Positions 18,060 to 63,672 of a stretch of DNA of 64,000 bases are shown here, piece by piece. Under the pieces are notes generated by a model. The model had not been told where the DNA came from, searched no databases, and worked only from the letters and a program-made list of their open reading frames with translations. Source of the DNA: Isoptericola jiangsuensis (GTDB taxonomy: Bacteria > Actinomycetota > Actinomycetes > Actinomycetales > Cellulomonadaceae); assembly GCF_002563715.1 (NCBI RefSeq), contig NZ_PDJJ01000001.1, forward strand, positions 1,364,001 to 1,428,000, given 5' to 3'. The translations under genes were made by a program, and so were the position numbers. Positions within the stretch are counted from its first letter, which is position 1; every line of letters starts with the position of its first letter.

Positions 18060-18157
18060 GGGTGGGAGGACGGGTCTGCCGCGCGGTCGCGCTCACGGGC
18101 GCTGCGCGCCCTCCGCGTCCGGTCTGACGACCGCGCGGCAGACCCGTCCTCCCACCC
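18060..18157. repeat. 98-bp structured intergenic element, copy 1
   Basis: Arms of 30 nt at 18060-18089 and 18128-18157 are perfect complements. The 38-nt centre (18090-18127) holds an inner hairpin GGGCGC-TGC-GCGCCC. The inner end of the arms (GCGCGGTCG) and 32 of 38 centre bases match the copy at 63575-63672, which has the same 30-38-30 plan. It lies between convergent genes and may also end transcription. Confidence 0.8.
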
Positions 18158-18199
18158 TTCGGCGTCCCGTCCCGCTCGGGAGCGTCGCCGCCGAGCGGG

Positions 18200-19393
18200 T
18201 CAGAGGACCCCGACGCCCAGGTTGACGGGGGAGCCGGTGATGTTGCCGACGATGCCGCGGATGATGCCGGTGCCGTCGGCGCCGCGCAGCCCCGCGTACC
18301 AGGCCTCGGTGCGCACCGGGTCGTAGCCGTGGGTCTCGGCGCCGCGGGCCCGGGCGCGCAGGACCAGGTCCGCGGCCCGCTCGGTGCGGGCCGCGGCGTA
18401 GCGGCGCAGCGAGTCCTCGACGCCCACCGTGTTCGTGGCGAGGCTGATCGCGAGGGCGAAGGTGTCCTCCAGGGCGAGGCAGGCGCCCTGCCCGATGTCG
18501 GGCGCGGTGTTGTGCGCGGCGTCGCCGAGCAGGGCGACCCGCCCGCGCACCCACGTGTGGAAGGGGTCGATGTCCCAGATCTCCACCCGGTTGAGGGAAC
18601 GGGCGGGGTCGATCGCGGCGAGCAGCGCCTTGACGCCCGGCGCCCAGTCGCCGAACGCCTCGGTCAGCGGTGCGGTGCCGTCGGCACGGTCGTACGGCAC
18701 GCCCGCCGGCTGCGGGACGTCGAACCAGAAGTAGAACCGGTCGCCCGCGACCGGCATGACCGCGGCGCGCTTGCCCTCGGCGACGTAGGTGGTCCACCGG
18801 TCGACCGGGCCGATCGCGGTGTCCGCGGGCACGAGACCGTTGAAGTTCGTGTAGCCCGAGTAGGTGCGCTCGATGCGGGTGCCGCCGTCGTCGGCCCGCG
18901 TGACGTGGTCCCGGGTGAGGGAGCGGGCGCCGTCCGCGCCGATCAGGAGGTCCGCGGAGTCGGTGGAGCCGTCCGCGAACGTCACCGTGACCCGCTCGCC
19001 GTCGTCGGCCAGCGCGACCATCTCGCGGCCGAGCCGCACGTGGTCGGCCCCGACGGCGTCCAGGAGGAGGCTCTGCAGGTCTGCCCGCGCCACCGGGTAG
19101 GGACGCTGGCCCGTCTGCTCGGTCACGGGCGCCAGGCTGAACGCGCACAGCTCGTCACCGGTGCGCCCGTCGAGGTAGGCCATGTCGTCCATGCGGCCGC
19201 CGAGCGCGGCGACCTCCTCGCCCAGGCCGAGCCAGTTGAGGACCTTGACCCCGTTGGACCACAGCGACAGCGCCGCGCCGACCGGCTTGTTCTCCCGCAC
19301 GCGGTCGTAGACGACGACGTCGTGCCCGAGCCGCCGCAGCGCGATGGCCGCGCTCGCCCCGCCGACGCCGGCGCCGATGACGATGATCTTCAC
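18200..19393 (-). CDS. hpxO: FAD-dependent urate hydroxylase HpxO
   Basis: Hydroxylates urate to 5-hydroxyisourate using FAD, NAD(P)H and oxygen. The 397-residue protein begins with IVIGAGVGGASAAIALRRLG (FAD site), has LLIGADGARSLTRD in the middle and GRVALLGDAAHNTAPDIGQG towards the end, the three flavoprotein hydroxylase fingerprints. The next two upstream genes encode the following steps of urate breakdown, which makes the urate assignment firm. GTG 19393 lies 2 nt after the uraH stop behind GGGAG. Confidence 0.92.
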   Translation of the reverse strand: MKIIVIGAGVGGASAAIALRRLGHDVVVYDRVRENKPVGAALSLWSNGVKVLNWLGLGEEVAALGGRMDDMAYLDGRTGDELCAFSLAPVTEQTGQRPYPVARADLQSLLLDAVGADHVRLGREMVALADDGERVTVTFADGSTDSADLLIGADGARSLTRDHVTRADDGGTRIERTYSGYTNFNGLVPADTAIGPVDRWTTYVAEGKRAAVMPVAGDRFYFWFDVPQPAGVPYDRADGTAPLTEAFGDWAPGVKALLAAIDPARSLNRVEIWDIDPFHTWVRGRVALLGDAAHNTAPDIGQGACLALEDTFALAISLATNTVGVEDSLRRYAAARTERAADLVLRARARGAETHGYDPVRTEAWYAGLRGADGTGIIRGIVGNITGSPVNLGVGVL

Positions 19394-19395
19394 GG

Positions 19396-19725
19396 TCAGC
19401 TCCCGCGGTAGGTCGAGTAGGCGAACGGGCTCAGCAGCAGCGGCACGTGCAGGTGCCGGTCGGCACCGGCGACGGTGACCTCGAACGTCACCGTCACCTC
19501 CGGGTAGAAGGTCTCCACGCCGCTGCGGGCGAAGTACGCGGCGGTCCCGAACGTCAGGGCGTACCGGCCGGGCGCCAGCCGCTCGGGGCCGAGCGCGGCG
19601 CGGCCGTCGGCGTCGGTGACGGCCGCGGCGACGAGCGTGTCCTCGGCGTCGGTCAGCTCGACGGCGACGCCGGTGGCGGGGACGCCGGTCGCGGCGTCCA
19701 GCACGTGGGTGGTCAGGTGGGTCAC
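19396..19725 (-). CDS. uraH: 5-hydroxyisourate hydrolase (transthyretin-like)
   Basis: Hydrolyses 5-hydroxyisourate to OHCU. The 109-residue protein has the transthyretin-like fold pattern: THVLDAATGVPATGVAVEL at the N-terminus, a central TDADGRA, and the C-terminal family tetrad in SPFAYSTYRGS, with HLHVPLLLSP before it. GTG 19725 overlaps the uraD stop by 4 nt. It is the middle gene of uraD-uraH-hpxO. Confidence 0.95.
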   Translation of the reverse strand: MTHLTTHVLDAATGVPATGVAVELTDAEDTLVAAAVTDADGRAALGPERLAPGRYALTFGTAAYFARSGVETFYPEVTVTFEVTVAGADRHLHVPLLLSPFAYSTYRGS

Positions 19726-20234
19726 GGGTGGTCCTCGGGGTCGGTCACGTCGCCGCGCAGCCTCAGCAGCGCGATCTGGGCGAGCTGGTCGCAGGCCTCG
19801 GCGACCTCGGTGGCGTCGTCGTGGTGGAGGCGTCGTTCGAGCTCGGCGAGCATCTCGTCGGGCGTGCGCCCGGCGGCGCGCACGAGGAAGACGCGGCCGA
19901 ACCGCTCCTCGTAGGCGCGGTTGCCGGCGGCGAGGCGCGCGGCGACGTCGTCGTCGGCGGTGGTCATGCTCGCCTGCTCGCGGCGCGAGGCCGCGGCCTC
20001 GGCGCCGTCGCCGGTGGGGCGTTCGCCGATGCGGGGGTGGTGGGCCAGGGCGGCGTCGAGCTCGGGGCGTCCCCACGTCGTGGCGAGCGCGGCGGCGTGG
20101 GCGGCCAGCGCGGCGGTCGTGCCGTAGGGGCGGCCCGCCACGACCGCGTCGGTCCAGGTGGGGACGGCGGCCCAGACGGCGACGGTCGCCGTCGCCGTGG
20201 CGGCGTCCAGGGTGTCGAAGTCGTCGATGTGCAC
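19722..20234 (-). CDS. uraD: OHCU decarboxylase
   Basis: Decarboxylates 2-oxo-4-hydroxy-4-carboxy-5-ureidoimidazoline to S-allantoin. The 170-residue protein contains HPRIGERPTG, in which the histidine is the family catalytic residue, followed by EQASM and NRAYEERFGRVFL. GTG 20234 has an AAAGGAG site 8 nt upstream. A TACGTT box on the minus strand at 20255-20260 is the likely promoter of the three-gene operon. Confidence 0.94.
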   Translation of the reverse strand: MHIDDFDTLDAATATATVAVWAAVPTWTDAVVAGRPYGTTAALAAHAAALATTWGRPELDAALAHHPRIGERPTGDGAEAAASRREQASMTTADDDVAARLAAGNRAYEERFGRVFLVRAAGRTPDEMLAELERRLHHDDATEVAEACDQLAQIALLRLRGDVTDPEDHP

Positions 20235-20254
20235 GGGACTCCTTTCGTCGGGTG

Positions 20255-20260
20255 AACGTA
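20255..20260 (-). promoter_or_regulatory. -10 box TACGTT of the uraD-uraH-hpxO operon
   Basis: It lies 21-26 nt before the uraD start, leaving room for the AAAGGAG ribosome site. No good -35 box is visible. Confidence 0.4.
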
Positions 20261-20332
20261 CGTCGCGAACGCTGCGGTCCTGTTTCGGTCGGATGACGAC
20301 GACGTGACGTGCGACACGTTGAAGATGCATGC

Positions 20333-20348
20333 TTGCGCAGATACGCAA
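20333..20348. promoter_or_regulatory. Dyad TTGCG-N6-CGCAA, probable ArsR-type operator
   Basis: TTGCG at 20333-20337 and CGCAA at 20344-20348 form a dyad 20 nt before the MFS gene. It overlaps a possible -35 (TTGCGC); a -10-like GATGAT follows at 20357-20362, 6 nt before the start codon. The ArsR protein encoded after the MFS gene is the obvious binder. Confidence 0.45.
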
Positions 20349-20368
20349 TTACATCGGATGATGGGCGC

Positions 20369-21622
20369 ATGCTCCGCGCCCTGGGTCACCCGGTCTACCG
20401 TCGGCTCCTGGCCGCGCAGGTCGTCGCGCTGCTCGGGACAGGTCTCGGCACGGTCGCGCTCGGCCTGCTCGCCCACGACCTCGCCGGGCCGCGCGCCGGG
20501 GCCGTCCTCGGCACGGCCTTCGCCGTGAAGATGCTCGCGTACGTGCTCGTCGCGCCGCTGGCCTCCGCGCTCCTCGCGCGCCGGTCCCGGCGGGCGGTGC
20601 TCGTCGGTGCCGACGTGGTGCGCGTGGCGGTCGCCGCCGCGCTGCCGTTCGTCGGCGAGGTCTGGCAGGTCTACCTGCTGGTCTTCGTCCTGCAGGCCGC
20701 GTCGGCGACCTTCACCCCGACGTTCCAGTCCGTGGTGCCCGACGTCCTCGTCGAGGAGGACGACTACACCGCCGGGCTGTCCCTGTCCCGGCTCGCGTAC
20801 GACCTCGAGGCCGTCGTGTCGCCGCTGCTCGCCGCCGCGCTGCTGCTCGTCGTGCCGGCCTCGACCCTGTTCGCCGGGACGGCGCTCGGGTGCGCGGCGT
20901 CGGCCCTGCTCGTCGCGGCCACCGTGCTGCCGCGCCGCACCGGCGCGGACGAGCCCGACCGCGACGCCGGGTCGTTCGGCCGGCGGGCCCGGCGCGGCGT
21001 CGTGCTGTTCGTCAGGACGCCGGGGCTGCGTCCGGTGCTGGCGCTCAACCTGGCGGTCGCGTCCGCCGGCGCCTTCGTCCTGGTGCAGGCGGTGGTGACG
21101 GCGCGCGACGTGCTCGGCCGGGGCGACGGGGCGGTCGCGCTGCTCCTCGCCGCCACGGGCGCGGGGTCGATGGTCGGGGCGTTCGTGCTGCCCGCGCTGC
21201 TGCGCCGGGTGCCCGAACGTCCCGTGATGCTCGTCGGCGGGGCGGTCGCCGCGGCCGCGACGCTGCTCGTGCCGGTCGCGCTCGCCCTGCCGTCCGAGGG
21301 TGCCGTCGGTGCGCCCGCGGCGCTCTGGGCGGCCGTCGGCCTCGGCTGGTCGGCCGCGGAGACGCCGGTCGGCCGGCTGCTGCGCCGGCACGTGCCTGCC
21401 CCGGACCTCCCGGACGCGTTCGCGGCGCAGTTCTCCCTGTCCCACGCGTGCTGGCTCGTGACCTACCCGCTGGCGGGCTGGCTGGGGCTCGCCGTCGGGA
21501 CCGGGGCCACGGCCCTGTGGCTCGGCGGTCTGGCGGTCGCCGCCACCGTGGTCGCGGCCCGGTCCTGGCCGACCCGCGTCGTCGTCTCCTCCGCCCCGGA
21601 GGTGCACGACGTGGGAGCATGA
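20369..21622 (+). CDS. MFS transporter
   Basis: A 417-residue major facilitator with about 12 hydrophobic segments and the loop 2-3 type basic motif in LARRSRRAVLVGADVVR. Its general shape is that of the MFS drug/efflux group without a visible substrate-specific motif. ATG 20369 is preferred to upstream in-frame starts because a -10-like box precedes it. The stop overlaps the ArsR gene start by 4 nt, so the regulator probably represses this exporter. Confidence 0.82.
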   Translation: MLRALGHPVYRRLLAAQVVALLGTGLGTVALGLLAHDLAGPRAGAVLGTAFAVKMLAYVLVAPLASALLARRSRRAVLVGADVVRVAVAAALPFVGEVWQVYLLVFVLQAASATFTPTFQSVVPDVLVEEDDYTAGLSLSRLAYDLEAVVSPLLAAALLLVVPASTLFAGTALGCAASALLVAATVLPRRTGADEPDRDAGSFGRRARRGVVLFVRTPGLRPVLALNLAVASAGAFVLVQAVVTARDVLGRGDGAVALLLAATGAGSMVGAFVLPALLRRVPERPVMLVGGAVAAAATLLVPVALALPSEGAVGAPAALWAAVGLGWSAAETPVGRLLRRHVPAPDLPDAFAAQFSLSHACWLVTYPLAGWLGLAVGTGATALWLGGLAVAATVVAARSWPTRVVVSSAPEVHDVGA

Positions 21623-21960
21623 GGCCCGTGGAGACGCGGCCCGGACTGCCCCCAGACGTCGACCTCGACCATGCCGTCGAGGTGCTGCGGCTGCTCGCCG
21701 ACCGGACGCGGCTGGCGATCCTCGTCATGCTGGACGGCACCGAGATGTCCGTGAGCGCCATCGCGGACACCCTCGGTCGGCCGACGCCCGCCGTCTCCCA
21801 GCACCTGGCCCGGCTGCGGGCGGGGCACCTGGTGACGTCGCGCCGCGAGGGCACGACGATCTTCTACGCGCAGCAGGACGAGCACGTCGCGGCGCTCGTG
21901 ACCAACGTCCTGCAGCACGGCGAGCACGTGCTCTACCCGTCGCCGCCGCACCACCGCTGA
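21619..21960 (+). CDS. ArsR-family transcriptional regulator
   Basis: A 113-residue winged helix-turn-helix protein. LRLLADRTRLAILVMLDG, SVSAIADTLGRPTPAVSQHLARLR and LVTSRREGTTIFY follow the ArsR/SmtB pattern. There are no cysteines in the usual alpha3 metal site (ELCVGDL in metal sensors), so the signal is probably not a metal; the C-terminal HGEHVLYPSPPHHR is histidine-rich. ATG 21619 overlaps the MFS stop. Confidence 0.88.
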   Translation: MRPVETRPGLPPDVDLDHAVEVLRLLADRTRLAILVMLDGTEMSVSAIADTLGRPTPAVSQHLARLRAGHLVTSRREGTTIFYAQQDEHVAALVTNVLQHGEHVLYPSPPHHR

Positions 21961-21991
21961 GGCGCGACACGTCCCCGTGACGTGCGGTGCC

Positions 21992-21997
21992 TACGAT
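21992..21997 (+). promoter_or_regulatory. -10 box TACGAT before the XRE-cupin regulator gene
   Basis: TACGAT lies 28 nt before GTG 22026, with ACAGGAGA as ribosome site in between, so this mRNA has a short normal leader. Confidence 0.45.
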
Positions 21998-22025
21998 GGC
22001 GCCACCCTCGCCGACAGGAGACGCC

Positions 22026-22694
22026 GTGGACACCACCCCCCTGCCCGCACGGATCGGGACCCGCCTGCGCGGCCTGCGCACCGCCTCGGGGCGGTCGCTG
22101 GCGTCGGTCGCCCAGGAGCTCGGCATCTCGTCGAGCGCGCTGTCGCAGATCGAGACCGGCGTGATGAAGCCGTCGGTGCAGCGGCTGGTCGAGCTGGTGG
22201 GGGTCCTGGGCGCGCCGGTGTCGGCGATCTTCGACGACGTGGGCGTCGCGACGCCGCGCGCGGACCCGCCGGGCGACGACGTGGAGGAGCCGCTGCCCGG
22301 GGTCCTCGTGGCGCACGGGGACCGGTCGGAGCCCGCCCACCTGGGGGAGGGCGTCACGTACCGGCGGTTGTCGCCCGCGCCGCTGCGCGGCGTGACGCTG
22401 TTCGAGTCGACGTACCCGCCCGGGTCGGCGTCCAGCCCCGCCGGGGAGATGCTGGTGCACGCCGGCTACGACTGCGGGCACGTCGTGTCCGGCGAGCTGA
22501 CGTTCGAGTTCGCGGACGGGCCGGTGCGGCTGGGTCCGGGCGGCTCCCTGTCGTTCGCGGCGTCGCGTCCGCACCGGGTGGTGAACGCCTCGGACGCCGT
22601 GGCGGTGGCGGTCTGGCTCACGGTCGAGCCGGGCGCCGCGGACGACGGCGGCGGCGAGGCGGTGCCGGGCGTCATCGGGGCGTTACCCGGGTGA
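22026..22694 (+). CDS. XRE-family regulator with C-terminal cupin domain
   Basis: A 222-residue protein. The N-terminal helix-turn-helix (about 8-62) reads RIGTRLRGLRTASGRSLASV, then GISSSALSQIETGVMKPSVQ. The cupin domain (about 120-210) includes HAGYDCGHVVSGELTFEF and LGPGGSLSF, where a small ligand would bind. It stands at the head of the allantoin operon, with a dyad operator 8 nt after its stop. I infer that it senses a purine breakdown product and controls the island. Confidence 0.88.
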   Translation: MDTTPLPARIGTRLRGLRTASGRSLASVAQELGISSSALSQIETGVMKPSVQRLVELVGVLGAPVSAIFDDVGVATPRADPPGDDVEEPLPGVLVAHGDRSEPAHLGEGVTYRRLSPAPLRGVTLFESTYPPGSASSPAGEMLVHAGYDCGHVVSGELTFEFADGPVRLGPGGSLSFAASRPHRVVNASDAVAVAVWLTVEPGAADDGGGEAVPGVIGALPG

Positions 22695-22701
22695 AACGGG
22701 G

Positions 22702-22727
22702 GAGTGTTAAGCAATGACTTGACACTC
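22702..22727. promoter_or_regulatory. Dyad operator GAGTGTTAAG-N6-CTTGACACTC before allB
   Basis: The 10-nt arms have one mismatch and a 6-nt spacer (caatga). The right arm contains a -35-like TTGACA (22719-22724), so binding would block the promoter. Related dyads lie at 35106-35123 and 41248-41277. Confidence 0.6.
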
Positions 22728-22730
22728 TGC

Positions 22731-22747
22731 GGGCGTCGTCGACGCCC
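22731..22747 (+). promoter_or_regulatory. Hairpin GGGCGTC-GTC-GACGCCC in the allB leader
   Basis: A perfect 7-bp stem with a 3-nt loop, just downstream of the allB operator and before the short leader frame. Its role is unknown. Confidence 0.35.
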
Positions 22748-22768
22748 GCCACGCCCCCGGGAGGCCGC

Positions 22769-22807
22769 ATGACGACGCACCGCACCGACGTCCGGACCCG
22801 CTCGTGA
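22769..22807 (+). CDS. Possible 12-residue leader peptide coupled to allB
   Basis: ATG 22769 lies behind CGGGAGG and encodes MTTHRTDVRTRS before a TGA that overlaps the allB GTG (GTGA). allB itself has no ribosome site of its own, so translation may reach it by coupling from this short frame. It has four Thr and three Arg codons in twelve. It could instead be chance; only comparison with relatives would tell. Confidence 0.4.
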   Translation: MTTHRTDVRTRS

Positions 22808-24192
22808 CCCGCCGGGTCCTGCGCGCCGGGCGCGCCTGGGTCGACGGGTCCCTGCGTCCGGCCGCCGTGCTCGTCGAGGACGGCCGCGTCGCCGCCGTGC
22901 TCGACCGGGACGCCCCGGTCGCGGACGCCGACGACCTCGCCCTTCCCGACGACACCGTGCTCCTGCCCGGCCTGGTCGACTCCCACGTGCACGTCAACGA
23001 GCCCGGCCGCACCGAGTGGGAGGGCTTCGCGTCCGCCACCGCGGCGGCGGCCGCCGGCGGCGTCACCACGCTCGTCGACATGCCGCTCAACTCCCTGCCG
23101 CCCACCACCACCGCCGACGCGCTCGCGGTCAAGCGGGCCGCCGCCCGGGCGAAGGTCCGCGTGGACGTCGGGTTCTGGGGCGGCGCCGTCCCGGAGAACC
23201 TGGGCTCGTTGGGCCCGCTCCACGACGCCGGGGTGCACGGCTTCAAGTGCTTCCTCGCGCCGTCGGGCGTGCCGGAGTTCGGCCACCTCGACGCCGCGGG
23301 CCTGGACGCCGCCGCCGCGGAGGTCGCCGCGCTCGGCTCCCGGCTGATCGTGCACGCCGAGGACCCGGACCTGCTCGCGCCCGCCGGCGCGCTGGGCCGC
23401 GGCTACGCCGCGTTCCTGGCGTCGCGACCCCCCGCGAGCGAGGCGTCGGCGATCGACGCCGTCATCGCGGCCGCGCGCCGCACGGGTGCCCGGGTGCACG
23501 TGCTGCACCTCAGCGACGCCACCTCGCTGCCCCTGATCCGGGCCGCGCGCGCCGACGGCGTCGACCTCACCGTGGAGACCTGCCCCCACTACCTCACGCT
23601 CACCGCCGAGGAGGTCCCCGACGGCGCCGCCGAGTTCAAGTGCTGCCCACCCATCCGCGGCACCGCCAACCAGGACCTGCTGTGGGGGGGCCTGCTCGAC
23701 GGCACGATCGACGCCGTCGTCAGCGACCACTCGCCGTCCACGGTCGAGCTCAAGCGGTCCGGCGACGGCGACTTCGGGCTCGCGTGGGGCGGCGTCTCGG
23801 GGCTGCAGGTGGGGCTGTCGGCCGTGTGGACCGAGGCCCGCCGTCGTGACGTCCCGCTGGAACGGCTCCTGCCGCTCTTCACCACCGGGCCGGCCGCCGT
23901 CGCCGGGCTGACCGGCGTCGGGACGATCACCCCCGGGGCGCCGGCGCACCTGACGGCGTTCGCCCCCGACGAGGAGCACGTCGTCGACGCCGCCGCGCTC
24001 CTGCACCGCAACCCCGTGTCCGCCTACGACCACCGCACCCTGCACGGTCGGGTGCGACGCACCTGGCTGCGCGGCGAGACCGTGTTCGACCTCGACCGCG
24101 GTGGCGTCGTCGGGGCGCCCGCGGGCCGCCTGCTCGCCGCGGCCACCGCCCGCACCGCCGCGCCCGTCCCGGCCGCCGGGGCCGACCGATGA
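22804..24192 (+). CDS. allB: Allantoinase
   Basis: Opens the allantoin ring to give allantoate. The 462-residue amidohydrolase has metal histidines His61 and His63 in DSHVHVNEPGRTEWEGF, the carboxylated Lys148 in HGFKCFLAPSG, a histidine in HAEDPDL, ETCPHYL, and the metal aspartate in SDHSPS. It is the first enzyme gene after the operator and overlaps the next gene by 4 nt. Confidence 0.95.
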   Translation: MTRRVLRAGRAWVDGSLRPAAVLVEDGRVAAVLDRDAPVADADDLALPDDTVLLPGLVDSHVHVNEPGRTEWEGFASATAAAAAGGVTTLVDMPLNSLPPTTTADALAVKRAAARAKVRVDVGFWGGAVPENLGSLGPLHDAGVHGFKCFLAPSGVPEFGHLDAAGLDAAAAEVAALGSRLIVHAEDPDLLAPAGALGRGYAAFLASRPPASEASAIDAVIAAARRTGARVHVLHLSDATSLPLIRAARADGVDLTVETCPHYLTLTAEEVPDGAAEFKCCPPIRGTANQDLLWGGLLDGTIDAVVSDHSPSTVELKRSGDGDFGLAWGGVSGLQVGLSAVWTEARRRDVPLERLLPLFTTGPAAVAGLTGVGTITPGAPAHLTAFAPDEEHVVDAAALLHRNPVSAYDHRTLHGRVRRTWLRGETVFDLDRGGVVGAPAGRLLAAATARTAAPVPAAGADR

Positions 24193-25394
24193 CCGGGTCC
24201 GTGCCGGCCACGACCACCGCCGCCGGGCCGGCACCAGCACCTGCACCCGCACCCGCGCCCGCACCGGGCCCGGCGACGACGCCGACCACCGAAGGGAACC
24301 CGCCCGTGCCGACGCCGATCCTCCAGCCCCACCCGGACGCCGTGCCCGGCGACCACTACCTGCCCGCGACCCCGGGCACGGTGCTGTGGGGCCGCCTGCC
24401 GTGCGCCACCGACGCCCCCGTGCTCACCGTGTCCCCGGGCGAGACCGTCACGATCGACACGATCAGCCACGAGGGGATCCTCGAGGACCAGGGCAAGGAC
24501 CCGGTGGCGTGGTTCGCCCGCCACGGCGTGCCCCGCGAGCAGGTGCTCGACGACGCCGTGGAGGTCGCCGCGGCCCTGTCCCGCGACCCGGGCGTCGACG
24601 GCCCGCACGTCGTCACGGGCCCCGTGCACGTCGTCGGCGCCCGCCCCGGCGACCTGCTGCGCGTCACCGTGGAGGCCCTGGACCTGCGGGTGCCCTACGG
24701 GGTGATCTCGAACCGGCACGGCAAGGGCGCGCTGCCCGGCGAGCTGCCCCGCACGCCCGGCACCGTCAGCGTGTTCTGCCCCGTCGAGGAGCGCGCCGGC
24801 CGGCTCGTCGGGACCCTTCCCGTCATCGAGGGCGGCCCCCGTGTCGTGGAGGTCCCGCTCGCGCCGTTCCTCGGCACGATGGGCGTCGCCGTGGAGGGGG
24901 CGGAGCGGCCGCACTCCGTGCCGCCCGGCCCGCACGGCGGCAACATCGACATCCGGCTCCTCACCCAGGGGTCGGTCCTGTACCTGCCGGTGCAGGTCGA
25001 CGGCGCGCTCGCGTACGTCGGCGACCCGCACTTCGCGCAGGGCGACGGCGAGGTGGCCCTCACCGCGCTGGAGGGCTCGCTGCGCGCGACCCTGCGCTTC
25101 GACGTCGTCCCGCGCGCCGAGGCGCTCGCGGAGTTCGGCGACGTCCTCGGTCCGCTGGTGCGTGCCGACGGCTACCTCGTGCCCACGGGCCTCGACCCCG
25201 ACCTCGGGGAGGCGATGCGCCGCGCCGTGCGCGCCGCCCTCGCGCTGCTCCAGGCGCGTTGGGGCATGGACGAGCACCTGGCCTACGCCTACCTGTCCGC
25301 CGCCACCGACTTCGACGTCTCCCAGGTCGTCGACGTCGTGTGCGGCGTCCACGCACGCATCCGCGAGGCCGACTTCGCGGAGGTCGAGCGATGA
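24189..25394 (+). CDS. Acetamidase/formamidase-family protein
   Basis: A 401-residue hydrolase if it starts at ATG 24189 (overlap with allB), or 362 residues from GTG 24306, which has its own GAAGGG site. The extra N-terminus is an Ala-Pro repeat and may not be translated or may be a flexible tail. The core has VSPGETVTIDTISHEG, ISNRHGKGALPGELP, and a glycine-rich PPGPHGGNIDIRL typical of FmdA/AmdA. In this operon it may split a small amide such as oxamate, formamide or carbamoyl compounds (inference). Confidence 0.82.
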   Translation: MTGSVPATTTAAGPAPAPAPAPAPAPGPATTPTTEGNPPVPTPILQPHPDAVPGDHYLPATPGTVLWGRLPCATDAPVLTVSPGETVTIDTISHEGILEDQGKDPVAWFARHGVPREQVLDDAVEVAAALSRDPGVDGPHVVTGPVHVVGARPGDLLRVTVEALDLRVPYGVISNRHGKGALPGELPRTPGTVSVFCPVEERAGRLVGTLPVIEGGPRVVEVPLAPFLGTMGVAVEGAERPHSVPPGPHGGNIDIRLLTQGSVLYLPVQVDGALAYVGDPHFAQGDGEVALTALEGSLRATLRFDVVPRAEALAEFGDVLGPLVRADGYLVPTGLDPDLGEAMRRAVRAALALLQARWGMDEHLAYAYLSAATDFDVSQVVDVVCGVHARIREADFAEVER

Positions 25395-29582: not shown

Positions 29583-29593
29583 CGACGGTCAGC
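29578..29593. terminator. Stop-to-stop dyad GCTGAC-GACG-GTCAGC
   Basis: A perfect 6-bp stem formed by the two convergent TGA stops (allC and the TetR gene) and neighbouring bases. Too short to be a strong terminator alone. Confidence 0.35.
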
Positions 29594-30173: not shown

Positions 30174-30224
30174 GGCGCCATGGTGGCACAGGTCACGGGT
30201 TATCCAACAGGTGTCAGATTCGTG

Positions 30225-51490: not shown

Positions 51491-51492
51491 CG

Positions 51493-52383: not shown

Positions 52384-52447
52384 GACCCCACCCTCGCCCC
52401 GGCCGTACGCCGCGCCGCGAGTAGTGCGGTACCCGAGCTCCCGTCGC

Positions 52448-52453
52448 TAGCAT
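52448..52453 (+). promoter_or_regulatory. -10 box TAGCAT, leaderless start for the LuxR-type gene
   Basis: TAGCAT ends 6 nt before ATG 52460. Confidence 0.6.
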
Positions 52454-52459
52454 GAACCC

Positions 52460-55078: not shown

Positions 55079-55133
55079 ACCGGTGCCGCCGCCCGGCGGT
55101 TGCGTCCCGGCGCGCGGCGGGCACGATGGGACG

Positions 55134-55544: not shown

Positions 55545-55577
55545 CCGCTCCCGGCGGGGCGCACGGCGCGCGGCCCG

Positions 55578-55583
55578 TAGGCT
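55578..55583 (+). promoter_or_regulatory. -10 box TAGGCT, leaderless start for trmB
   Basis: TAGGCT ends 6 nt before GTG 55590. Confidence 0.6.
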
Positions 55584-55589
55584 TGGTCG

Positions 55590-56375: not shown

Positions 56376-56394
56376 CCGGTGCCGGCCGGGTCAG
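56372..56394. terminator. Stop-to-stop dyad CTGACC ... GGTCAG
   Basis: The trmB and bioN stops lie in complementary 6-nt arms with an 11-nt GC-rich centre. Confidence 0.35.
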
Positions 56395-56996: not shown

Positions 56997-57682
56997 GCCG
57001 GGACCCCCATGAGCGTCCGGTAGGCGGGGACGGCGACCGCGGGCACGTCGTCGACGACGACGCGGCCGTCGTCGACGACGAGCACCCGGTCGTAGCCGGC
57101 CACCAGGTCGAGGTCGTGGGTGACGAGGACGACGTCCTGCTCCAGCGCCGCGAGGCGGGCGGCGACGTCGCGGGTGCGGCGCAGGTCGAGCAGGGTGGTG
57201 GGCTCGTCCGCGACGACGAGCCGCGGGCCGGACACGAGCACGCCGACCAGCGCGAGGAGCTGCTTCTGCCCGCCGGACAGCAGGTGCGCGGGGTGGTCGG
57301 CGTGCCCGGCGAGGCCGTACCGGTCGAGCTCGGCGGCGACCCGCGCGTCGATCTCGGCGCGGGACAGGCCCGACCGGCGCAGCGAGTAGGCGACGTCCTC
57401 GGCGACGGTGGGCATGAGGATCTGCGCGTCGGGGTCGGTGAACATGAACCCGACGCGCCGCCGGACGTCGCGCCCGCGGCGCCGGGTGTCGAGCCCGTCG
57501 ACGTGCACGGAGCCCGTGGTGGGCAGCACGAGCCCGTTGAGGAGCCGCGCGAGCGTGGACTTGCCCGACCCGTTGGCCCCGATCACGGCGACGCGCCGTT
57601 CGGTGATCCGCAGGCTCACGCCGCGCAGCACGTGACGGCCCTCGCGGTGCACGTGGACGTCGTCCAGCACGATCTCGGTCAT
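56993..57682 (-). CDS. bioM: ECF transporter ATPase, BioM-like
   Basis: A 229-residue ATPase: Walker A GANGSGKSTLARLL, Q-loop FTDPDAQILMPTV, signature LSGGQKQLLALVGVLVSG, Walker B LVVADEPTTLLDL and VTHDLDLV. Only one ATPase gene is present, as in BioMNY systems. ATG 57682 overlaps the thiolase-like stop by 4 nt. Confidence 0.92.
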   Translation of the reverse strand: MTEIVLDDVHVHREGRHVLRGVSLRITERRVAVIGANGSGKSTLARLLNGLVLPTTGSVHVDGLDTRRRGRDVRRRVGFMFTDPDAQILMPTVAEDVAYSLRRSGLSRAEIDARVAAELDRYGLAGHADHPAHLLSGGQKQLLALVGVLVSGPRLVVADEPTTLLDLRRTRDVAARLAALEQDVVLVTHDLDLVAGYDRVLVVDDGRVVVDDVPAVAVPAYRTLMGVPA

Positions 57683-58851
57683 CGGACCACCTCCACCAGC
57701 ACCGCCACGCCCTGACCCCCGGCGGCGGCCGCGGCCGCCACCCCCAGCGAGCCGTCCGGGACGTCCGCACGCACGAGCCGGGAGAACAGCCGCACGAGCG
57801 CGACGGCGCCGCTCGCGCCGAACGGGTGCCCCCGCCCGAGGGCGCCGCCGTCCGCGTTCCACCGCGGGTCGGCGAGCACGTCGAGGCCGAGGTCGTCGCC
57901 GACGGCCAGCACCTGCCCGGCGAACGCCTCGACGACCTCGAGCGCGGCGACGTCGTCGAGCCGCACCCCGGCGCGGGCGCACACCCGGCGCACGGCCGGC
58001 ACGACGGCCAGGGGCGCGTCGGCAGGGGTGCCCGCCACGGCGACGGTCGCGACGACCCGCAGCCCGGCCGCCCCGGGCGGGAGGGCGTCGTCGGCGACGA
58101 GCGCCACCGCCGCGGCGCCGTCCGCCGCGGGCGCGGCCGACAGCGCCGTCACGGAGCCGCCGGGCGTGAACGCACCGGGCAGCCGCGCCTGCATGCCCGG
58201 GGGCACGGTGCGGGCGTGCTCGTCGTGAGCGAGCGACCCGACGCCGGTCGTCTCGGCGGCGAACCGGTCGGCCGCGTGCGCGGCGAGGATCCGGGCGTGG
58301 GACGTCGCGGCGCAGGTGTGCTGCCGCTCCCGGTCGATCCCGCGCCGGGTCGCGAGCGCCTCGGCGGCGAGCCCGAGGTCGGGGTCCGCCCAGGGCGGCG
58401 GGGCGAACGACGCACGCGCGTACCGCAGCGGGCCGTGCGCACGGGTCGGTGCCCGCCCGGCGACCTCGACGCCCCCGGCGAGCACGACGTCCGCCTGGCG
58501 GGCGTCCACCAGGGCGGACCCGAGCACGACCGCCGCGAGCCCGGAGGCGCACTGCCTGTCGACCCCGACGCCGGGCACGTGCCGCCCGAACGCGGCCAGC
58601 GCGGCCCGGCGGGCCACGTCGCCGCCGTGCCCGGCCGCGTTGCCGAGCAGGACGTCGTCGACGTCGGCGCGCTCGCCGCGTGGTGGGGTGCCGGGGCCGC
58701 GAGGTCCGGGTGGTGCGGCGCGGAGTCCGCCCGCGAGGTCCTGGGCGCAGGCCGCGAGGACCGCGGCGGCGAGCGTCGTCTCGTCCTGCGCCGCGTGCCC
58801 GCGCCCGGCGCGCCCGACCCAGGTGCGGCGCGCGGCCACGATCACGCTCAC
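57679..58851 (-). CDS. Thiolase-like protein lacking the second catalytic cysteine
   Basis: A 390-residue protein of the acetyl-CoA acetyltransferase family. The nucleophile Cys101 is present in DRQCASGLAAVV and the histidine in GRGHPFGASG. The C-terminal CxGGGQG motif reads AAAGGQG, with Ala375 where the acid/base cysteine should be, and the NEAFA motif reads VEAFAG. It may lack normal thiolase activity or use a different reaction. The bioY-ligase-thiolase run parallels yhfU-yhfT-yhfS of Bacillus subtilis, whose function is not settled. Confidence 0.82.
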   Translation of the reverse strand: MSVIVAARRTWVGRAGRGHAAQDETTLAAAVLAACAQDLAGGLRAAPPGPRGPGTPPRGERADVDDVLLGNAAGHGGDVARRAALAAFGRHVPGVGVDRQCASGLAAVVLGSALVDARQADVVLAGGVEVAGRAPTRAHGPLRYARASFAPPPWADPDLGLAAEALATRRGIDRERQHTCAATSHARILAAHAADRFAAETTGVGSLAHDEHARTVPPGMQARLPGAFTPGGSVTALSAAPAADGAAAVALVADDALPPGAAGLRVVATVAVAGTPADAPLAVVPAVRRVCARAGVRLDDVAALEVVEAFAGQVLAVGDDLGLDVLADPRWNADGGALGRGHPFGASGAVALVRLFSRLVRADVPDGSLGVAAAAAAGGQGVAVLVEVVR

Positions 58852-60239
58852 CGCAGGGCCTCCAGGTCGCCGACGTCCGCCGTGGGGTCGATCCCGGCGA
58901 CGGCCGCTCCCAGGGCCGAGCGGGCGGGCTTGCCGCCGCCGGTGCGGGGCAGGGCGTCGAGCCGGTACCAGCGGCGGGGACGCTGCGCCGGAGCGAGGGT
59001 GCTGCGGGCGACGCGGTCGAGGTGGGCGCGCAGCCCGGGGCGGGCGTCGGCCTCCACGACGGCCACGACGACGGCGCCGAGCCGGCGGTGCGGCGCCCCC
59101 ACGACGACGACGTCCCGCACGCCCGGCACGGGGCGCAGCGCCAGCTCGACGTCCTCGGGCACCACCGTGGCGCCGGCGGTGAGGATGGCACCGTCCCCGC
59201 GCCCGCGCAGCACGAGCGGCGCGTCGGGTCCGGCGAGGTCGGCGAGGTCGCCGACGGTGCACCAGTCGCCGGACCGCTGCAGGGGACCGCGGGCGCCCGC
59301 GAGGTAGCCGTCGGCGGTCCAGGGGGACCGCACCCAGACCTCGCCGAGCCCGGTGTGCGGGGCAGGGCGCACGTCGACCTCGACCTCGGGGAACGGCCGC
59401 AGCCCGTCGCCTGTGTCCACGGCGACGAAGCTCAGCTCGACGGCGCCGTAGTAGGCGACCAGGCGCAGGCCGTGCGCGGCGGCCCGCTCGTGCTGGGCGC
59501 GGTCGAGGGCGGCGCCGCCCACGACGACGGTGCGCAGCCGGCTGGGCGCGCCCTGGTCGAGGGCGTCGAGGAGGTCGTCGAGACGGGACGGCACGACGTG
59601 GGCGACGTCGACGTCGGGAAGGGCCGCGACGGCCGCGGTCGGCGTGGGGGCGACGAGGACGCCCGCCCCGGTGCCGAGGGCGTGCACGGCGGCGAAGCAG
59701 TGCAGGGAGCCGGCGAGCGGCCCCGTGACGAGCACGGTGTCGGCGGGGGTGGTGCCCGTCAGCGCGGACACGTGCCCGAACGACCGCGTCCAGGAACCGC
59801 GGGTGCGACGCACCGCGCGCGGCCGGCCCGTGCTGCCCGACGAGAAGCCGGCCCAGGCGGCGACGTCGTCCGCCGGTGGTGGGCCGGGATCCGCCGGGAC
59901 GCGCCGGCCCCGCGGCAGCGGGACGGCGACGACGGCGGCCGGTGCGAGCGCGCGCAGCACCTCGGCGCGCTGGTGGACGCCCCACGCGGGGTCGCCCACC
60001 AGCGCCACGCCGCCCGCGTGGTCGACGGCGAGCATCGCGACCAGGGTGTCCACCGGGTCGGTCAGGGTGAGGGCGACCAGATCGCCCGCCACCACGCCCA
60101 CGCCGCGCAGGTGCGCGGCCCCCGCGGCGACGTCCGCGGCGAGCTCGGCCCACGTGCGGGTGCGGTGCGCGCAGCGCAGCGCCGCGCGACCGGCGTCGGG
60201 GCCGGTCGCACGGCGCAGCACCTCGTGGGCGACGGGCAC
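58848..60239 (-). CDS. AMP-dependent acyl-CoA ligase-like protein
   Basis: A 463-residue ANL-family enzyme. Motif A3 is GFSSGSTGRPRAV, with Arg where Lys is usual; YYGAVELSFVAV matches the A5 region, GDLADL and the final catalytic Lys in RTGGGKPARSAL are present. It probably activates a carboxylate to the CoA thioester; in this operon pimelate, biotin or a biotin-like acid is possible (inference). GTG 60239 lies 3 nt after the bioY stop. Confidence 0.83.
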   Translation of the reverse strand: MPVAHEVLRRATGPDAGRAALRCAHRTRTWAELAADVAAGAAHLRGVGVVAGDLVALTLTDPVDTLVAMLAVDHAGGVALVGDPAWGVHQRAEVLRALAPAAVVAVPLPRGRRVPADPGPPPADDVAAWAGFSSGSTGRPRAVRRTRGSWTRSFGHVSALTGTTPADTVLVTGPLAGSLHCFAAVHALGTGAGVLVAPTPTAAVAALPDVDVAHVVPSRLDDLLDALDQGAPSRLRTVVVGGAALDRAQHERAAAHGLRLVAYYGAVELSFVAVDTGDGLRPFPEVEVDVRPAPHTGLGEVWVRSPWTADGYLAGARGPLQRSGDWCTVGDLADLAGPDAPLVLRGRGDGAILTAGATVVPEDVELALRPVPGVRDVVVVGAPHRRLGAVVVAVVEADARPGLRAHLDRVARSTLAPAQRPRRWYRLDALPRTGGGKPARSALGAAVAGIDPTADVGDLEALR

Positions 60240-60242
60240 CGC

Positions 60243-60887
60243 TCAGGCCGCCCGGCGGTGGTGCGCGAGGGCGGCGGGGTAGGCGCGGGCCACGCCCACG
60301 GTGACACCCGCGCACGCGAGGGCCTTGAGCACGTCCCCGGGCACGAACATCAGCGACAGCAGCGCGGTCTCGGGCAGCGGCACCCCCGTGACGAGGGCCT
60401 GCACCGGGACGCCGAAGGCGTACACGACGGCGACGCCGCCCACGAGGCTCGCCCCGAGCACCCCCGCGAACGTGACCCGTCGCAGCCGCTCCACCAGCAG
60501 GCCCACGACGAACGCGCCGACGACGAACCCGACGAGGTAGCCGGCCGACGGGCCGACGAACACCCCGAGCCCGCCGCGGCCCCCGGCGAGCAGCGGCAGC
60601 CCCGCCGCGACGAGCGCGAGCAGGGTCAGCACGGCGAGCGCGCCCCGCCGCGCCCCGAGGATCGCGCCCGCCAGCATGACGCCGAGCGTCTGGAACGTGA
60701 TCGGGACGGCGTTGCCGAACAGAGCGAGCGGACCCGGCATGCCGAGCACCGCGATGAGCGCCGCGAACGTCGCGACCCGCGCCGCGTCGGCGGCCGTGGC
60801 CCGCTCCGGTGCCGACCAGGTGTCGTCCGCGGCGGTGCCGGCCCCCACGGGCGTGGTCGCGCTGGGCGTGGTGTCGCTGCCGGTCAT
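60243..60887 (-). CDS. bioY: Biotin transporter S component BioY
   Basis: A 214-residue membrane protein with six hydrophobic segments. GNAVPITFQTLGVMLAGAIL and GGRGGLGVFVGPSAGYLVGF are BioY hallmarks. The N-terminal 40 residues are a Thr/Ala-rich cytoplasmic tail. ATG 60887 follows AAGGAGC. It is the first gene of bioY-ligase-thiolase-bioM-bioN. Confidence 0.94.
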   Translation of the reverse strand: MTGSDTTPSATTPVGAGTAADDTWSAPERATAADAARVATFAALIAVLGMPGPLALFGNAVPITFQTLGVMLAGAILGARRGALAVLTLLALVAAGLPLLAGGRGGLGVFVGPSAGYLVGFVVGAFVVGLLVERLRRVTFAGVLGASLVGGVAVVYAFGVPVQALVTGVPLPETALLSLMFVPGDVLKALACAGVTVGVARAYPAALAHHRRAA

Positions 60888-60988
60888 CGTGCTCCTTCGT
60901 CGGGCGGTCCTCGGGCCCTTCCACTGTGACCGTCCCCGCGCCGCCGGTTCGCCGGACCGCCGGCCAGCGTGGGGTCGTCGGCGTGCAC

Positions 60989-61020
60989 GGAACGTACAAC
61001 GCGTTGTCGGGTCCGCCCAA
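60989..61020 (-). promoter_or_regulatory. bioY promoter with palindrome ACAACGCGTTGT in the spacer
   Basis: On the minus strand TTGGGC (plus 61015-61020) and TACGTT (60991-60996) are 18 nt apart. Between them ACAACGCGTTGT (60996-61007) is a perfect palindrome in a longer imperfect one. This is where a biotin repressor would act; neither the BirA nor the BioQ consensus is matched closely. Confidence 0.5.
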
Positions 61021-61095
61021 CGCCGCACGGCCCGGCGTGCCCGATCCCTCCAACTCGGGCTGCGCCCGGCGCGTCCTCGGGGAACGATGCCAGGC

Positions 61096-62580
61096 ATGGA
61101 CACCTACGACGTCATCGTCATCGGCGCGGGCCCCGTCGGGGAGAACGCCGCCGACCGCGCCACCCGCACCGGCCTCTCCGTCGCGGTCGTGGAGGCCGAG
61201 CTCGTCGGCGGGGAGTGCTCCTACTGGGCGTGCATCCCCTCCAAGACGCTGCTGCGCCCCGGCGCGGCCCGCGCCGCCGCGGCGGCCGTCCCCGGCGTCG
61301 CCGACCCCGGCCCCCTCGACGTCGACGCCGTCCTCGCCTGGCGCGACGAACGCACCGGCGAGGGCGACGACTCCGGGCAGGAGGCCTGGCTCGACTCCGT
61401 CGGGATCACCCTGCTGCGCGGCCACGGACGGCTCGTCGGCGAACGCGTCGTCGAGGTCACGCCCGCCCTGGGCGTGGACGACGACGCCGACGGCCAGGTG
61501 CGACGCCTCACCGCCCGCTGCGCCGTCGTCGTCGCCACCGGCAGCGCCCCCGTGCTGCCCGGCGTGCCCGGCCTGGCCGAGGCCGAGCCCTGGACGTCGC
61601 GCGAGGCCACCGCCGTCGAGTCCGTCCCCGACTCGCTGATCGTCGTCGGCGGGGGAGTCGTGGGCTGCGAGATGGCGCAGGCGTACGCCGACCTCGGCTC
61701 CCACGTCACCCTGCTGGCCCGTGGCACGCTCCTCGGCGGCGCGGAGCCCTTCGCCGGTGAAGCCGTCGCCGCCGCCCTGCGCGACGCCGGCGTCGACGTC
61801 CGCCTCGGCGTCGAGACCCGCGCGGTCACCCGCCCCGAGCCCGGCGGACCCGTCACCGTGACCGTCACCGACACCGACGGGGGCGGACCCGCCGACGTCA
61901 CCGCCGCCGAGCTGCTCGTGGCCACGGGCCGCCGGCCCCGCACCGGGGACGTCGGCCTCGACACCGTCGGCCTCGACCCCGCCGCAGCGTTGACCGTCGA
62001 CGACACCACCGCCGTCGTCGGCGCCGCCCCCGACGACCAGGGCCGCCCCTGGCTCTACGCCTGCGGCGACGTCACCGGCCGCGCCGCGACCACCCACCAG
62101 GGCAAGTACGAGGCCCGCGTCTGCGGGGACGTCGTCGCCACCCGGTTCGGCCACGACGGCGCTCGCGCCACCGACGTCGAGACCGCCGGCGACTGGAGCC
62201 GCTACCGCGCCACCGCCGACCACGGCGCCCGCACCCAGGCCGTGTTCACCCGCCCCCAGGTCGCCTGGGTCGGCCCCACCGAGGCCGCCGCGCGCGCCGC
62301 CGGGAAGGACGTCGACGTCGTCACCTACGAGCTCGGGGACGTCGCCGGTGCCGGCGTCACCTCGCCCGACTACGCCGGCCGCGCCCAGCTCATCGTCGAC
62401 CGCGAGCGCCGCGTCGTCGTCGGCGCCACGTTCGTCGGCCCCGAGGCCGCCGAGATGCTGCACGCCGCCACCATCGCCGTCGTCGGCGAGGTCCCCCTCG
62501 ACCGGCTCTGGCACGCCGTCCCCGCGTTCCCCACCGTCAGCGAGGTCTGGCTCCGCCTCGCCGAGAGCTCCGGCCTGTGA
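61096..62580 (+). CDS. FAD-dependent pyridine nucleotide-disulfide oxidoreductase
   Basis: A 494-residue flavoprotein of the lipoamide dehydrogenase/mercuric reductase family. VIVIGAGPVGENAAD binds FAD; the redox pair Cys41-Cys46 is in GGECSYWACIPSK; IVVGGGVVGCEMAQ is the NAD(P) site; the C-terminal active-site His and Glu are in HAVPAFPTVSE. The CSYWAC form with Ala before the second Cys resembles mercuric-reductase-like paralogues rather than true E3. ATG 61096 is used (61087 is an alternative). Confidence 0.88.
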   Translation: MDTYDVIVIGAGPVGENAADRATRTGLSVAVVEAELVGGECSYWACIPSKTLLRPGAARAAAAAVPGVADPGPLDVDAVLAWRDERTGEGDDSGQEAWLDSVGITLLRGHGRLVGERVVEVTPALGVDDDADGQVRRLTARCAVVVATGSAPVLPGVPGLAEAEPWTSREATAVESVPDSLIVVGGGVVGCEMAQAYADLGSHVTLLARGTLLGGAEPFAGEAVAAALRDAGVDVRLGVETRAVTRPEPGGPVTVTVTDTDGGGPADVTAAELLVATGRRPRTGDVGLDTVGLDPAAALTVDDTTAVVGAAPDDQGRPWLYACGDVTGRAATTHQGKYEARVCGDVVATRFGHDGARATDVETAGDWSRYRATADHGARTQAVFTRPQVAWVGPTEAAARAAGKDVDVVTYELGDVAGAGVTSPDYAGRAQLIVDRERRVVVGATFVGPEAAEMLHAATIAVVGEVPLDRLWHAVPAFPTVSEVWLRLAESSGL

Positions 62581-62632
62581 GCCGCCACGGCTCTTCACCC
62601 GGGACGCACACCGGCACCCCGCACCGGCCGGA

Positions 62633-62638
62633 TAGGCT
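62633..62638 (+). promoter_or_regulatory. -10 box TAGGCT, leaderless start for the ATP-grasp gene
   Basis: TAGGCT ends 6 nt before GTG 62645. Confidence 0.6.
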
Positions 62639-62644
62639 GCGGAC

Positions 62645-63556
62645 GTGACCCAGACGAAGCGAGTCGGACTCGCCACCTGCTCCGTCCTGCCCGACCTCGA
62701 CGCGGACGACCGGCCGCTCCTCGGCGCCCTCGCCGCCCGCGGCGTCACCGCCGAGGCCGTCGTCTGGGACGATCCCGACGTCGACTGGGACGCCTACGAC
62801 CTCGTCGTCGTCCGCTCCACGTACGACTACTCGCCGCGCCGTGACGAGTTCGTCCAGTGGGCCCGCACCGTGCCCCGCCTCGCGAACTCCGCGGACGTCA
62901 TCGCCTGGAACACCGACAAGACGTACCTCCAGGCCCTGGAGCAGGGCGGCGTCCCCGTCATCCCCACGATCTGGCTCGACCCCGACCGGCACTTCTCCAA
63001 GCGCGCCATCCACACGCGCATGCCCGCGTTCGGCGACTTCGTCGTCAAGCCCGTCGTGTCCGCGGGCGCCAAGGACACCGGCCGCTACCAGCCCGTCAGC
63101 GCCCAGTCCCGCGCCATGGCCATCGACCACGCGAAGGACCTGCTCGAGTCCGGCCGCGCCGTCATGATCCAGCCGTACGTCACCAGCGTCGACACCGCCG
63201 GCGAGACCTGCCTCGTCTTCGTCGAGGGCGAGATGCGGCACGCCGTCCGCAAGAACGCGCTGCTCACCGGTCCCAGCCGCCCCACCCAGGGCCTGTACCG
63301 CAAGGAGCAGATGAGCGCCGTCCAGGCCACGCCCGAGCAGGTCGACGTCGCCCGCAAGGCCCTCGCCGTCGCGCACGAGCAGGTCGATCAGTCCACGCCG
63401 TTCCTCTACGCCCGCGTCGACCTCGTCACCGGCGCCGACGACGTCCCCACCGTCATCGAGCTCGAGCTCACCGAGCCGTCCCTCTGGCTGAAGTACTCCG
63501 GCGAGAGCGACACCCTCGGCAAGCTGGCGGACTCGATCGTCGCTCGCCTGGGCTGA
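62645..63556 (+). CDS. ATP-grasp domain protein
   Basis: A 303-residue ligase-type protein. FGDFVVKPVVSAGAKDTGRY carries the ATP-binding lysine, VMIQPYV follows, and TVIELELTEPSLWL holds the metal-binding acidic residues of the grasp. Related proteins include the cycloserine ligase DcsG and amino-acid ligases; the real substrate is unknown. Its 5' neighbour is the flavoprotein gene, but it has its own promoter. Confidence 0.82.
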   Translation: MTQTKRVGLATCSVLPDLDADDRPLLGALAARGVTAEAVVWDDPDVDWDAYDLVVVRSTYDYSPRRDEFVQWARTVPRLANSADVIAWNTDKTYLQALEQGGVPVIPTIWLDPDRHFSKRAIHTRMPAFGDFVVKPVVSAGAKDTGRYQPVSAQSRAMAIDHAKDLLESGRAVMIQPYVTSVDTAGETCLVFVEGEMRHAVRKNALLTGPSRPTQGLYRKEQMSAVQATPEQVDVARKALAVAHEQVDQSTPFLYARVDLVTGADDVPTVIELELTEPSLWLKYSGESDTLGKLADSIVARLG

Positions 63557-63574
63557 TCTGCCCGCCGGACGTTC

Positions 63575-63672
63575 GCGGGCCGGAACCCGAGGGCGGCGCG
63601 GTCGCGCTCACGGTCGCTGCGCGACCTGCGCTTCCCGTCCGACGACCGCGCCGCCCCCGGGCCCCGGCCCGC
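63575..63672. repeat. 98-bp structured intergenic element, copy 2
   Basis: Arms at 63575-63604 and 63643-63672 are complementary with three mismatches. The 38-nt centre (63605-63642) has the inner hairpin GGTCGC-TGC-GCGACC. Same 30-38-30 plan as 18060-18157, with the outer arms quite different in sequence. Confidence 0.8.

What the first reader, a model, noticed from the sequence alone, without database searches (positions are those of the whole stretch)
18060..63672. A new family of 98-bp structured intergenic elements with covarying arms
Copies at 18060-18157 and 63575-63672 share the plan 30-nt arm, 38-nt centre, 30-nt arm. The centres match at 32 of 38 positions, starting CGCTCAC and containing a 6-bp hairpin with a TGC loop where one base pair changes from G:C to T:A on both sides. 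The inner nine bases of each arm (GCGCGGTCG) are conserved, while the outer arms differ strongly but keep pairing. This points to selection on structure, probably a cruciform or three-way RNA. Both are between convergent genes.
Basis: seen in the sequence. Interest (0 to 1): 0.8.

Follow-up and report, generated by a model that had tools for sequence, protein, structure and literature searches.

The report
Repeated long-stem terminator-like hairpins
An actinobacterium and its relatives carry many copies of a long hairpin, mostly just after the ends of genes; its tip is nearly the same from copy to copy while its long legs differ widely from place to place yet still pair, which fits a family of transcription stop signals that I found in none of the catalogues I searched.

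Summary
Both window copies have the stated anatomy. A covariance model from 18 chosen copies gives 60 matches in the window's own 4.04-Mb genome: 56 complete copies, one degenerate, one partial, and two antisense readings of other copies. All 18 genus genomes match, as do 38 of 200 in the family. In 34 sequences from several genera an unbranched fold (long arms, a 2-bp G-Y/R-C step, an asymmetric 3' bulge, an inner 6-bp hairpin) has 99.1% of cells paired and 15 of 20 pairs with two-sided changes; RNAalifold returns the same fold. By my rough gene calls, 39 of 54 intergenic copies lie between convergent genes, 47 of 54 follow a gene on the same strand, none is divergent. Most likely they are terminator-like 3'-end hairpins with a conserved tip. 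Relatives often carry plain hairpins or nothing at the same places, and two inferred losses of the tip left a hairpin. A three-way junction is not supported. No Rfam match was found. Termination is untested, the tip's role unknown, and the mode of spread unresolved.

The parts
18060..18089 (+). copy 1, left (5') arm; inner 9 nt GCGCGGTCG shared with copy 2, outer 21 nt alike at only 9 positions
   Evidence: 30 of 30 Watson-Crick with 18128-18157
18090..18127 (+). copy 1, centre: CGCTCAC, inner hairpin GGGCGC-TGC-GCGCCC (18097-18111), 3' side TCCGCGTCCGGTCTGA
18128..18157 (+). copy 1, right (3') arm, followed by TTCGG
63575..63604 (+). copy 2, left arm
   Evidence: 27 of 30 Watson-Crick with 63643-63672
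63605..63642 (+). copy 2, centre: CGCTCAC, inner hairpin GGTCGC-TGC-GCGACC (63612-63626), 3' side TGCGCTTCCCGTCCGA
   Evidence: one search covers the family but does not hold this copy
63643..63672 (+). copy 2, right arm
16368..18044 (+). gene upstream of copy 1, sodium:solute symporter family (PF00474); stop codon ends 15 nt before the left arm
18200..19393 (-). convergent gene downstream of copy 1, FAD-binding (PF01494)
62645..63556 (+). gene upstream of copy 2 (303 aa, no Pfam match at E 0.001); stop codon ends 18 nt before the left arm
63707..63744 (.). separate plain 17-bp hairpin with a 4-nt loop between copy 2 and the convergent minus-strand gene; not a member of the family, a local example of an ordinary terminator-like hairpin

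Best explanation
A lineage-specific family of dispersed terminator-like 3'-end hairpins. The mRNA of the upstream gene ends in a GC-rich stem (27-35 bp in 51 of 56 own copies) whose sequence is largely free but whose pairing is kept. The stem carries a conserved tip: an internal loop TCAC/TCC under a 6-bp hairpin, and a 3' bulge with TTCSGG and an ACG at its end. Shown: anatomy, copy number, covariation, placement at gene 3' ends, orientation with the upstream gene, a short T-rich flank on the 3' side only, and plain hairpins at many orthologous places in relatives. Inferred: that it stops transcription, mainly of the upstream gene; that arms stay paired through compensatory change, perhaps helped by replication template switching between the arms; and that the tip is kept because something binds it, or merely by common descent of copies that spread with their intergenic neighbourhoods.
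For: Placement: 54 of 58 rows fall outside called genes; 39 convergent, 8 same/same, 7 opposite/opposite, 0 divergent; 47 of 54 have the upstream gene on the same strand (my own crude gene caller). Control, window gaps of 30 nt or more: 8 convergent, 12 divergent, 12 tandem of 32; Fisher p = 4e-5 for convergent, 1.5e-6 for divergent. T in the 5 nt after the 3' arm 87 of 280 versus A in the 5 nt before the 5' arm 18 of 280, p = 3e-14. Relatives: 14 G000 sites in 6 genomes gave 75 of 84 possible cells: 19 with the core, 28 with a plain hairpin, 28 with neither by my cut-off. Core gone, hairpin kept: G003 at 3444386 (31 nt of the centre missing) and G008 at window site 1, where the tree puts the empty form inside a filled clade (support 99 and 100). 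Compensation: G000 versus G003 at 8 sites, 224 pairs: 174 identical, 34 changed on both sides and still paired, 16 with a mismatch.
Against: No expression data. The T tract is short (T 23, 52, 39, 21% at +1 to +4; 27 of 56 copies have fewer than 2 T in 5 nt). Plain hairpins at convergent sites in the window have shorter stems (best 17 bp), though relatives have plain ones up to 33 bp; so neither very long arms nor a tip seem necessary. Mismatches lean to A.C over G.T (36 vs 9 overall, 22 vs 9 in outer arms), the reverse of what selection on the sense RNA predicts. 7 of 54 copies do not follow a same-strand gene. Copies avoid about 1.09 Mb around the presumed terminus, which plain termination does not explain. 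In one search shared indels or non-homologous arms inflate some two-sided changes. 28 of 75 orthologous cells have neither core nor a plain hairpin, so no hairpin is needed there.
Confidence: 0.6

Rival explanations
1. A small non-autonomous mobile element (MITE- or REP-like) whose conserved tip is the recognition hairpin of a transposase or recombinase, settling preferentially in or as 3'-end hairpins.
For: Many copies per genome (57 places counted; 59 matches in G003), present or absent at orthologous sites, sometimes reversed (3 of 33 core-bearing cells; also G006 at site 2), and sites with the core only in G000 among the relatives found there (374399, 675548, 788573).
Against: Y1 transposase (PF01797) in 0 of 18 genus genomes, with controls ringing in 5 of 14, so no sign of an IS200/RAYT partner. 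BLAST of copy 1 found nothing in the phage and plasmid collections, and two exact tip patterns nothing in viral contigs. I saw no target-site duplication by eye. Both clear empty forms look like losses. Similar copies share arms plus up to several hundred bp of flank, so the unit that spread is at least sometimes larger. Reversed cores can come from spacer inversion between inverted arms.
Confidence: 0.2
2. A regulatory or mRNA-stabilising 3'UTR RNA whose conserved internal loop and bulge bind a protein; termination is secondary.
For: Many loop residues are invariant or nearly so across 34 sequences from several genera while pairs vary; loss of the core leaves a hairpin, so the tip is not needed for a plain hairpin terminator.
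Against: Copies come and go at orthologous sites; tip conservation may reflect common descent; G-U pairs are very rare (3 of 680 cells).
Confidence: 0.13
3. A DNA-level element (cruciform or protein site) acting in chromosome organisation or replication.
For: A gap of 1.09 Mb without copies, roughly opposite dnaA, in G000 (57 copies, 47 clusters; 0 of 20000 random placements; dnaA at 57 kb); none of the 39 of 59 G003 matches listed lies at 0.40-1.26 Mb, opposite its dnaA at 2.66 Mb; arms kept by Watson-Crick rather than wobble pairs.
Against: Orientation and position follow gene 3' ends; 41 of 57 co-oriented with the presumed leading strand is what following genes could give. The terminus is assumed to lie opposite dnaA, and the gap was noticed before it was tested.
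Confidence: 0.05

Closest known systems
Intrinsic (Rho-independent) transcription terminators
   Same: GC-rich hairpin soon after stop codons, oriented with the upstream gene, enriched between convergent genes, T-rich on the 3' side
   Different: Mostly 27-35-bp arms, a centre of about 38-42 nt with its own conserved fold instead of a short loop, and a shared tip across dozens of loci
Terminators made of inverted DNA uptake signals (Neisseria, Pasteurellaceae; PMC1852404, passages seen)
   Same: A dispersed conserved sequence built into terminator hairpins
   Different: There the stem holds the conserved 9-11-nt signal; here the outer stem is largely free and the tip conserved, with far fewer copies
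REP-type GTAG and CGTC palindromic repeats (PMC3733652, passages seen)
   Same: Dispersed small palindromes with variable stems and loops
   Different: Those have 5-13-bp or 8-9-bp stems and a GTAG or CGTC tag, GTAG types being associated with transposase genes; here stems are far longer and no Y1 transposase was found in 18 genus genomes
Stem-loop repeat families in prokaryotic genomes (PMC1590033, abstract and section list seen)
   Same: Stem-loops concentrated at the 3' side of genes, some forming repeat families
   Different: New families named there are in Yersiniae, Bordetellae and Enterococci; the abstract does not mention a conserved tip on free arms

Membership tests
Intrinsic transcription terminator | GC-rich hairpin downstream of a gene in its orientation | tested here: met
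   47 of 54 follow a same-strand gene; 7 do not
Intrinsic transcription terminator | T/U tract directly after the stem | tested here: inconclusive
   one-sided T enrichment, but short: 29 of 56 copies have 2 or more T in 5 nt, against 4 of 56 with 2 or more A on the mirror side
Intrinsic transcription terminator | terminates transcription | not testable with these tools
   needs Term-seq or a reporter
REP/RAYT system | Y1 (RAYT) transposase in the genome | tested here: not met
   PF01797 in 0 of 18 genus genomes, controls ring in 5 of 14
MITE | target-site duplication and an autonomous relative | tested here: inconclusive
   no duplication seen by eye; only two clear empty forms, both probably losses; no systematic search for an autonomous relative
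Known Rfam family | match at gathering score | tested here: not met
   only three tRNAs in the window; none in four loci with relatives; permissive search of copy 1 gave only microRNA-type hairpins below their gathering scores
DNA uptake signal terminators | one short signal, repeated hundreds to thousands of times, forming the stem | tested here: not met
   outer stems mostly differ between sites, although some related copies share arms; 57 places in this genome

The most novel reading that the evidence does not exclude
A new class of factor-assisted 3'-end element: a free-sequence stem that presents a conserved structured tip (TCAC/TCC internal loop plus TTCSGG bulge) to an unknown protein, with arm identity restored at DNA level by template switching so that the stem drifts quickly yet stays nearly perfect.
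Probability: 0.2. Interest if true: 0.75.

Novelty: new variant of a known kind. Interest (0 to 1): 0.52.

Why it matters
It gives a natural set of dozens of hairpins in one genome in which the tip is nearly constant and the stem varied, with filled, emptied and reversed versions in sister species. That is a ready test of how terminators arise, are lost and stay palindromic, and of what a conserved hairpin tip adds at an mRNA end in GC-rich actinobacteria.

Tried and rejected
Core inserted into pre-existing terminator loops: suggested by the G008 empty form at site 1, not upheld because the tree makes it a loss. Three-way junction: RNAalifold gives no branch. IS200/RAYT mobilisation: no Y1 transposase. 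Phage or plasmid origin: no BLAST match of copy 1, no exact match of two tip patterns in viral contigs. Counts per genome are lower bounds, since only 21 and 13 candidates per genome were scored; searches scored 150 per genome. My first arm parser misread at least four copies and was replaced; a first core test missed copies and was replaced. Rows dropped: one search uses 56 of 58 places (partial tandem copy 747027 and degenerate copy 3964033 left out); two antisense matches (3309528 and 1106095) were left out from then on; A1 holds 18 copies picked by a near-exact 16-mer and A2 34 chosen copies. In one search orthology rests on BLAST of one gene end, plain hairpins were accepted only with loops of 15 nt or less, and some windows may run into the next gene.
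Full report
What is there. Arms pair at 30 of 30 and 27 of 30 positions, centres agree at 32 of 38, and the outer 21 nt of the left arms agree at only 9. The junction pattern is found twice in the window against a shuffle mean of 0.01.

How many. The window is G000:C1:1364001-1428000 of a single 4.04-Mb contig. Eighteen copies, picked by a near-exact 16-mer, were aligned (A1). On a named structure of 27 arm pairs and 6 inner pairs, 94.4% of 594 cells pair, 22 of 33 pairs have a two-sided change, and 0 of 500 shuffles reach any of the five measures; slid partners fall to 40-49%. Model R1 gives 60 matches at E <= 0.001 in the own genome: two are the antisense reading of other copies, one is a partial tandem duplicate, one is degenerate, 56 are complete. 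The genus search hits 18 of 18 genomes, with 59 matches in G003 and 28 in G006. The family search hits 38 of 200 genomes, 20 of them outside the genus, in 7 of 25 genera. The order search with R2 hits 10 of 396: 8 in the genus, 1 elsewhere in the family, 1 weak match outside it at E 4.2e-4. Candidate limits make the last two searches lower bounds. The length of G006:C1 equals that of NZ_CP119106.1, Isoptericola sp. AK164 (L117), so the genus is probably Isoptericola; this is an inference from length.

Structure. Across 34 chosen sequences from the genus and other genera (A2) the tip reads CGYTCACG-hairpin-CTCCRCTTCSGG-N-ACG in most. A structure with 12 arm pairs, a G-Y/R-C step and 6 inner pairs has 99.1% of 680 cells paired and 15 of 20 pairs with two-sided changes, 0 of 500 shuffles; I had drawn it from the alignment, and RNAalifold then predicted the same 20 pairs. 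The Y/R pair is U-A 25, C-G 8, U-G 1; one inner pair is C-G 17 and G-C 17. The fold is unbranched. Caveat: the minimum-energy folds of the two window copies alone keep the long stem but draw the centre differently.

Placement. With a simple codon-usage gene caller of my own, 54 of 58 rows are outside called genes: 39 convergent, 8 same/same, 7 opposite/opposite, 0 divergent. The window's gaps of 30 nt or more are 8 convergent, 12 divergent and 12 tandem, giving p = 4e-5 and 1.5e-6. Ten pairs of copies within 2 kb face each other in the listing; in six of the ten the flanking genes are called convergent, as if each gene had its own copy; in the other four they are not, or a called gene overlaps. 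T is enriched only after the 3' arm: 87 of 280 against 18 of 280 on the mirror side. The outer left arm is G-rich (G 584, C 265, T 131, A 67 of 1047, first parser).

Evolution. At window site 1 (plain hairpins judged by eye), G000 and G003 share the same outer arms; G006, G007 and G012 share a different hairpin with the core; G008 has a like hairpin, with two mismatches, without the core; G013, G017, G005, G015 and G014 have unrelated plain hairpins; G009 has no evident one; G001 has the core with other arms. The tree groups G008 with G012 and then G007 (support 99 and 100), so G008 most simply lost the core and kept the stem. At 3444386, G003 lacks 31 nt of the centre and keeps a 33-bp stem. 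At window site 2 the core is forward in G000, G003 and G007 and reversed in G006, with other arms in G007 and G006; G013 has a plain hairpin, and G008, G012 and G014 have short spacers without an evident one. Over 14 further sites, the 75 cells found in six relatives are 19 core (3 of them reversed), 28 plain hairpin, 28 neither; G003 has the core at 9 of the 13 sites where it was found, one of them reversed. Sites such as 3187532 and 2520727 look inherited: related tips, drifted arms, pairing kept. Between G000 and G003, 34 of 50 changed pairs are two-sided and still paired, though some reflect shared indels or unrelated arms.

DNA or RNA. Of 1639 arm positions, 1554 are Watson-Crick, 9 G.T, 36 A.C and 40 other; 16 of 56 copies have flawless arms. 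Selection on the sense RNA should favour G.T over A.C; the opposite is seen (p = 7e-5 overall, 0.03 in outer arms; shared ancestry inflates the first). Template switching between inverted repeats is reported to homogenise arms and invert spacers (PMC8604942, start of abstract in the listing; a yeast study), which would account for both the near-perfect arms and the reversed cores. This is an inference.

Spread. Similar copies share flanks as well as arms: 84% over 451 bp for 3597681/3851168, and 67-82% over about 170-650 bp in the other best rows shown, partly through short repeat arrays. In G008 three copies that I compared share near-identical arms and flanking sequence. The unit that spreads is therefore at least sometimes a larger intergenic block. 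No Y1 transposase, no phage or plasmid match of copy 1 and no exact tip pattern in viral contigs was found.

Chromosome position. The largest copy-free stretch is 1.09 Mb, roughly opposite dnaA at 57 kb; 0 of 20000 random placements of 47 clusters give such a gap. In G003, with dnaA at 2.665 Mb, none of the 39 of 59 matches listed lies between 0.40 and 1.26 Mb. This is unexplained.

Known or new. No Rfam match. The closest published kinds are intrinsic terminators (recalled), uptake-signal terminators (PMC1852404, passages), REP-type repeats (PMC3733652, passages) and 3'-side stem-loop families (PMC1590033, abstract). None combines free long arms with a conserved bulged tip in the parts I saw.

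Noticed in passing
L230, L232, L218, L211 and other own-genome loci beside several copies: Arrays of a short motif GCGAGTCAGCG (either strand), spaced roughly 20 bp by eye, flank many type-B copies; the 9-mer GAGTCAGCG counted 0 in the window.
   Followed up: partly
L184, L198, L383 (G008); L267, L329 (G001); L248 (G003): Other species have comparable arrays of a different motif (GCGAGGTAGT.., GCGAGGTAGGCAA..) in gene 3' spacers, beside the element in G008 and G003.
   Followed up: no
L303, L305, L352, L333, L323 (G001, G007, G012, G006): A second dispersed palindrome family at gene 3' ends with conserved OUTER ends (GTTGTGGGC..GCCCACAAC and variants) and variable inner sequence, the reverse of the family studied.
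   Followed up: no
L348, L350, L358: Another repeated long plain palindrome in G008 and G012, starting GCCGAAC.
   Followed up: no
G000:C1:1.43-2.52 Mb: No copies in about 1.09 Mb around the presumed terminus.
   Followed up: partly
L210, G000:C1:746915-747110: Tandem duplication of one copy; the second unit has lost most of its left arm.
   Followed up: no
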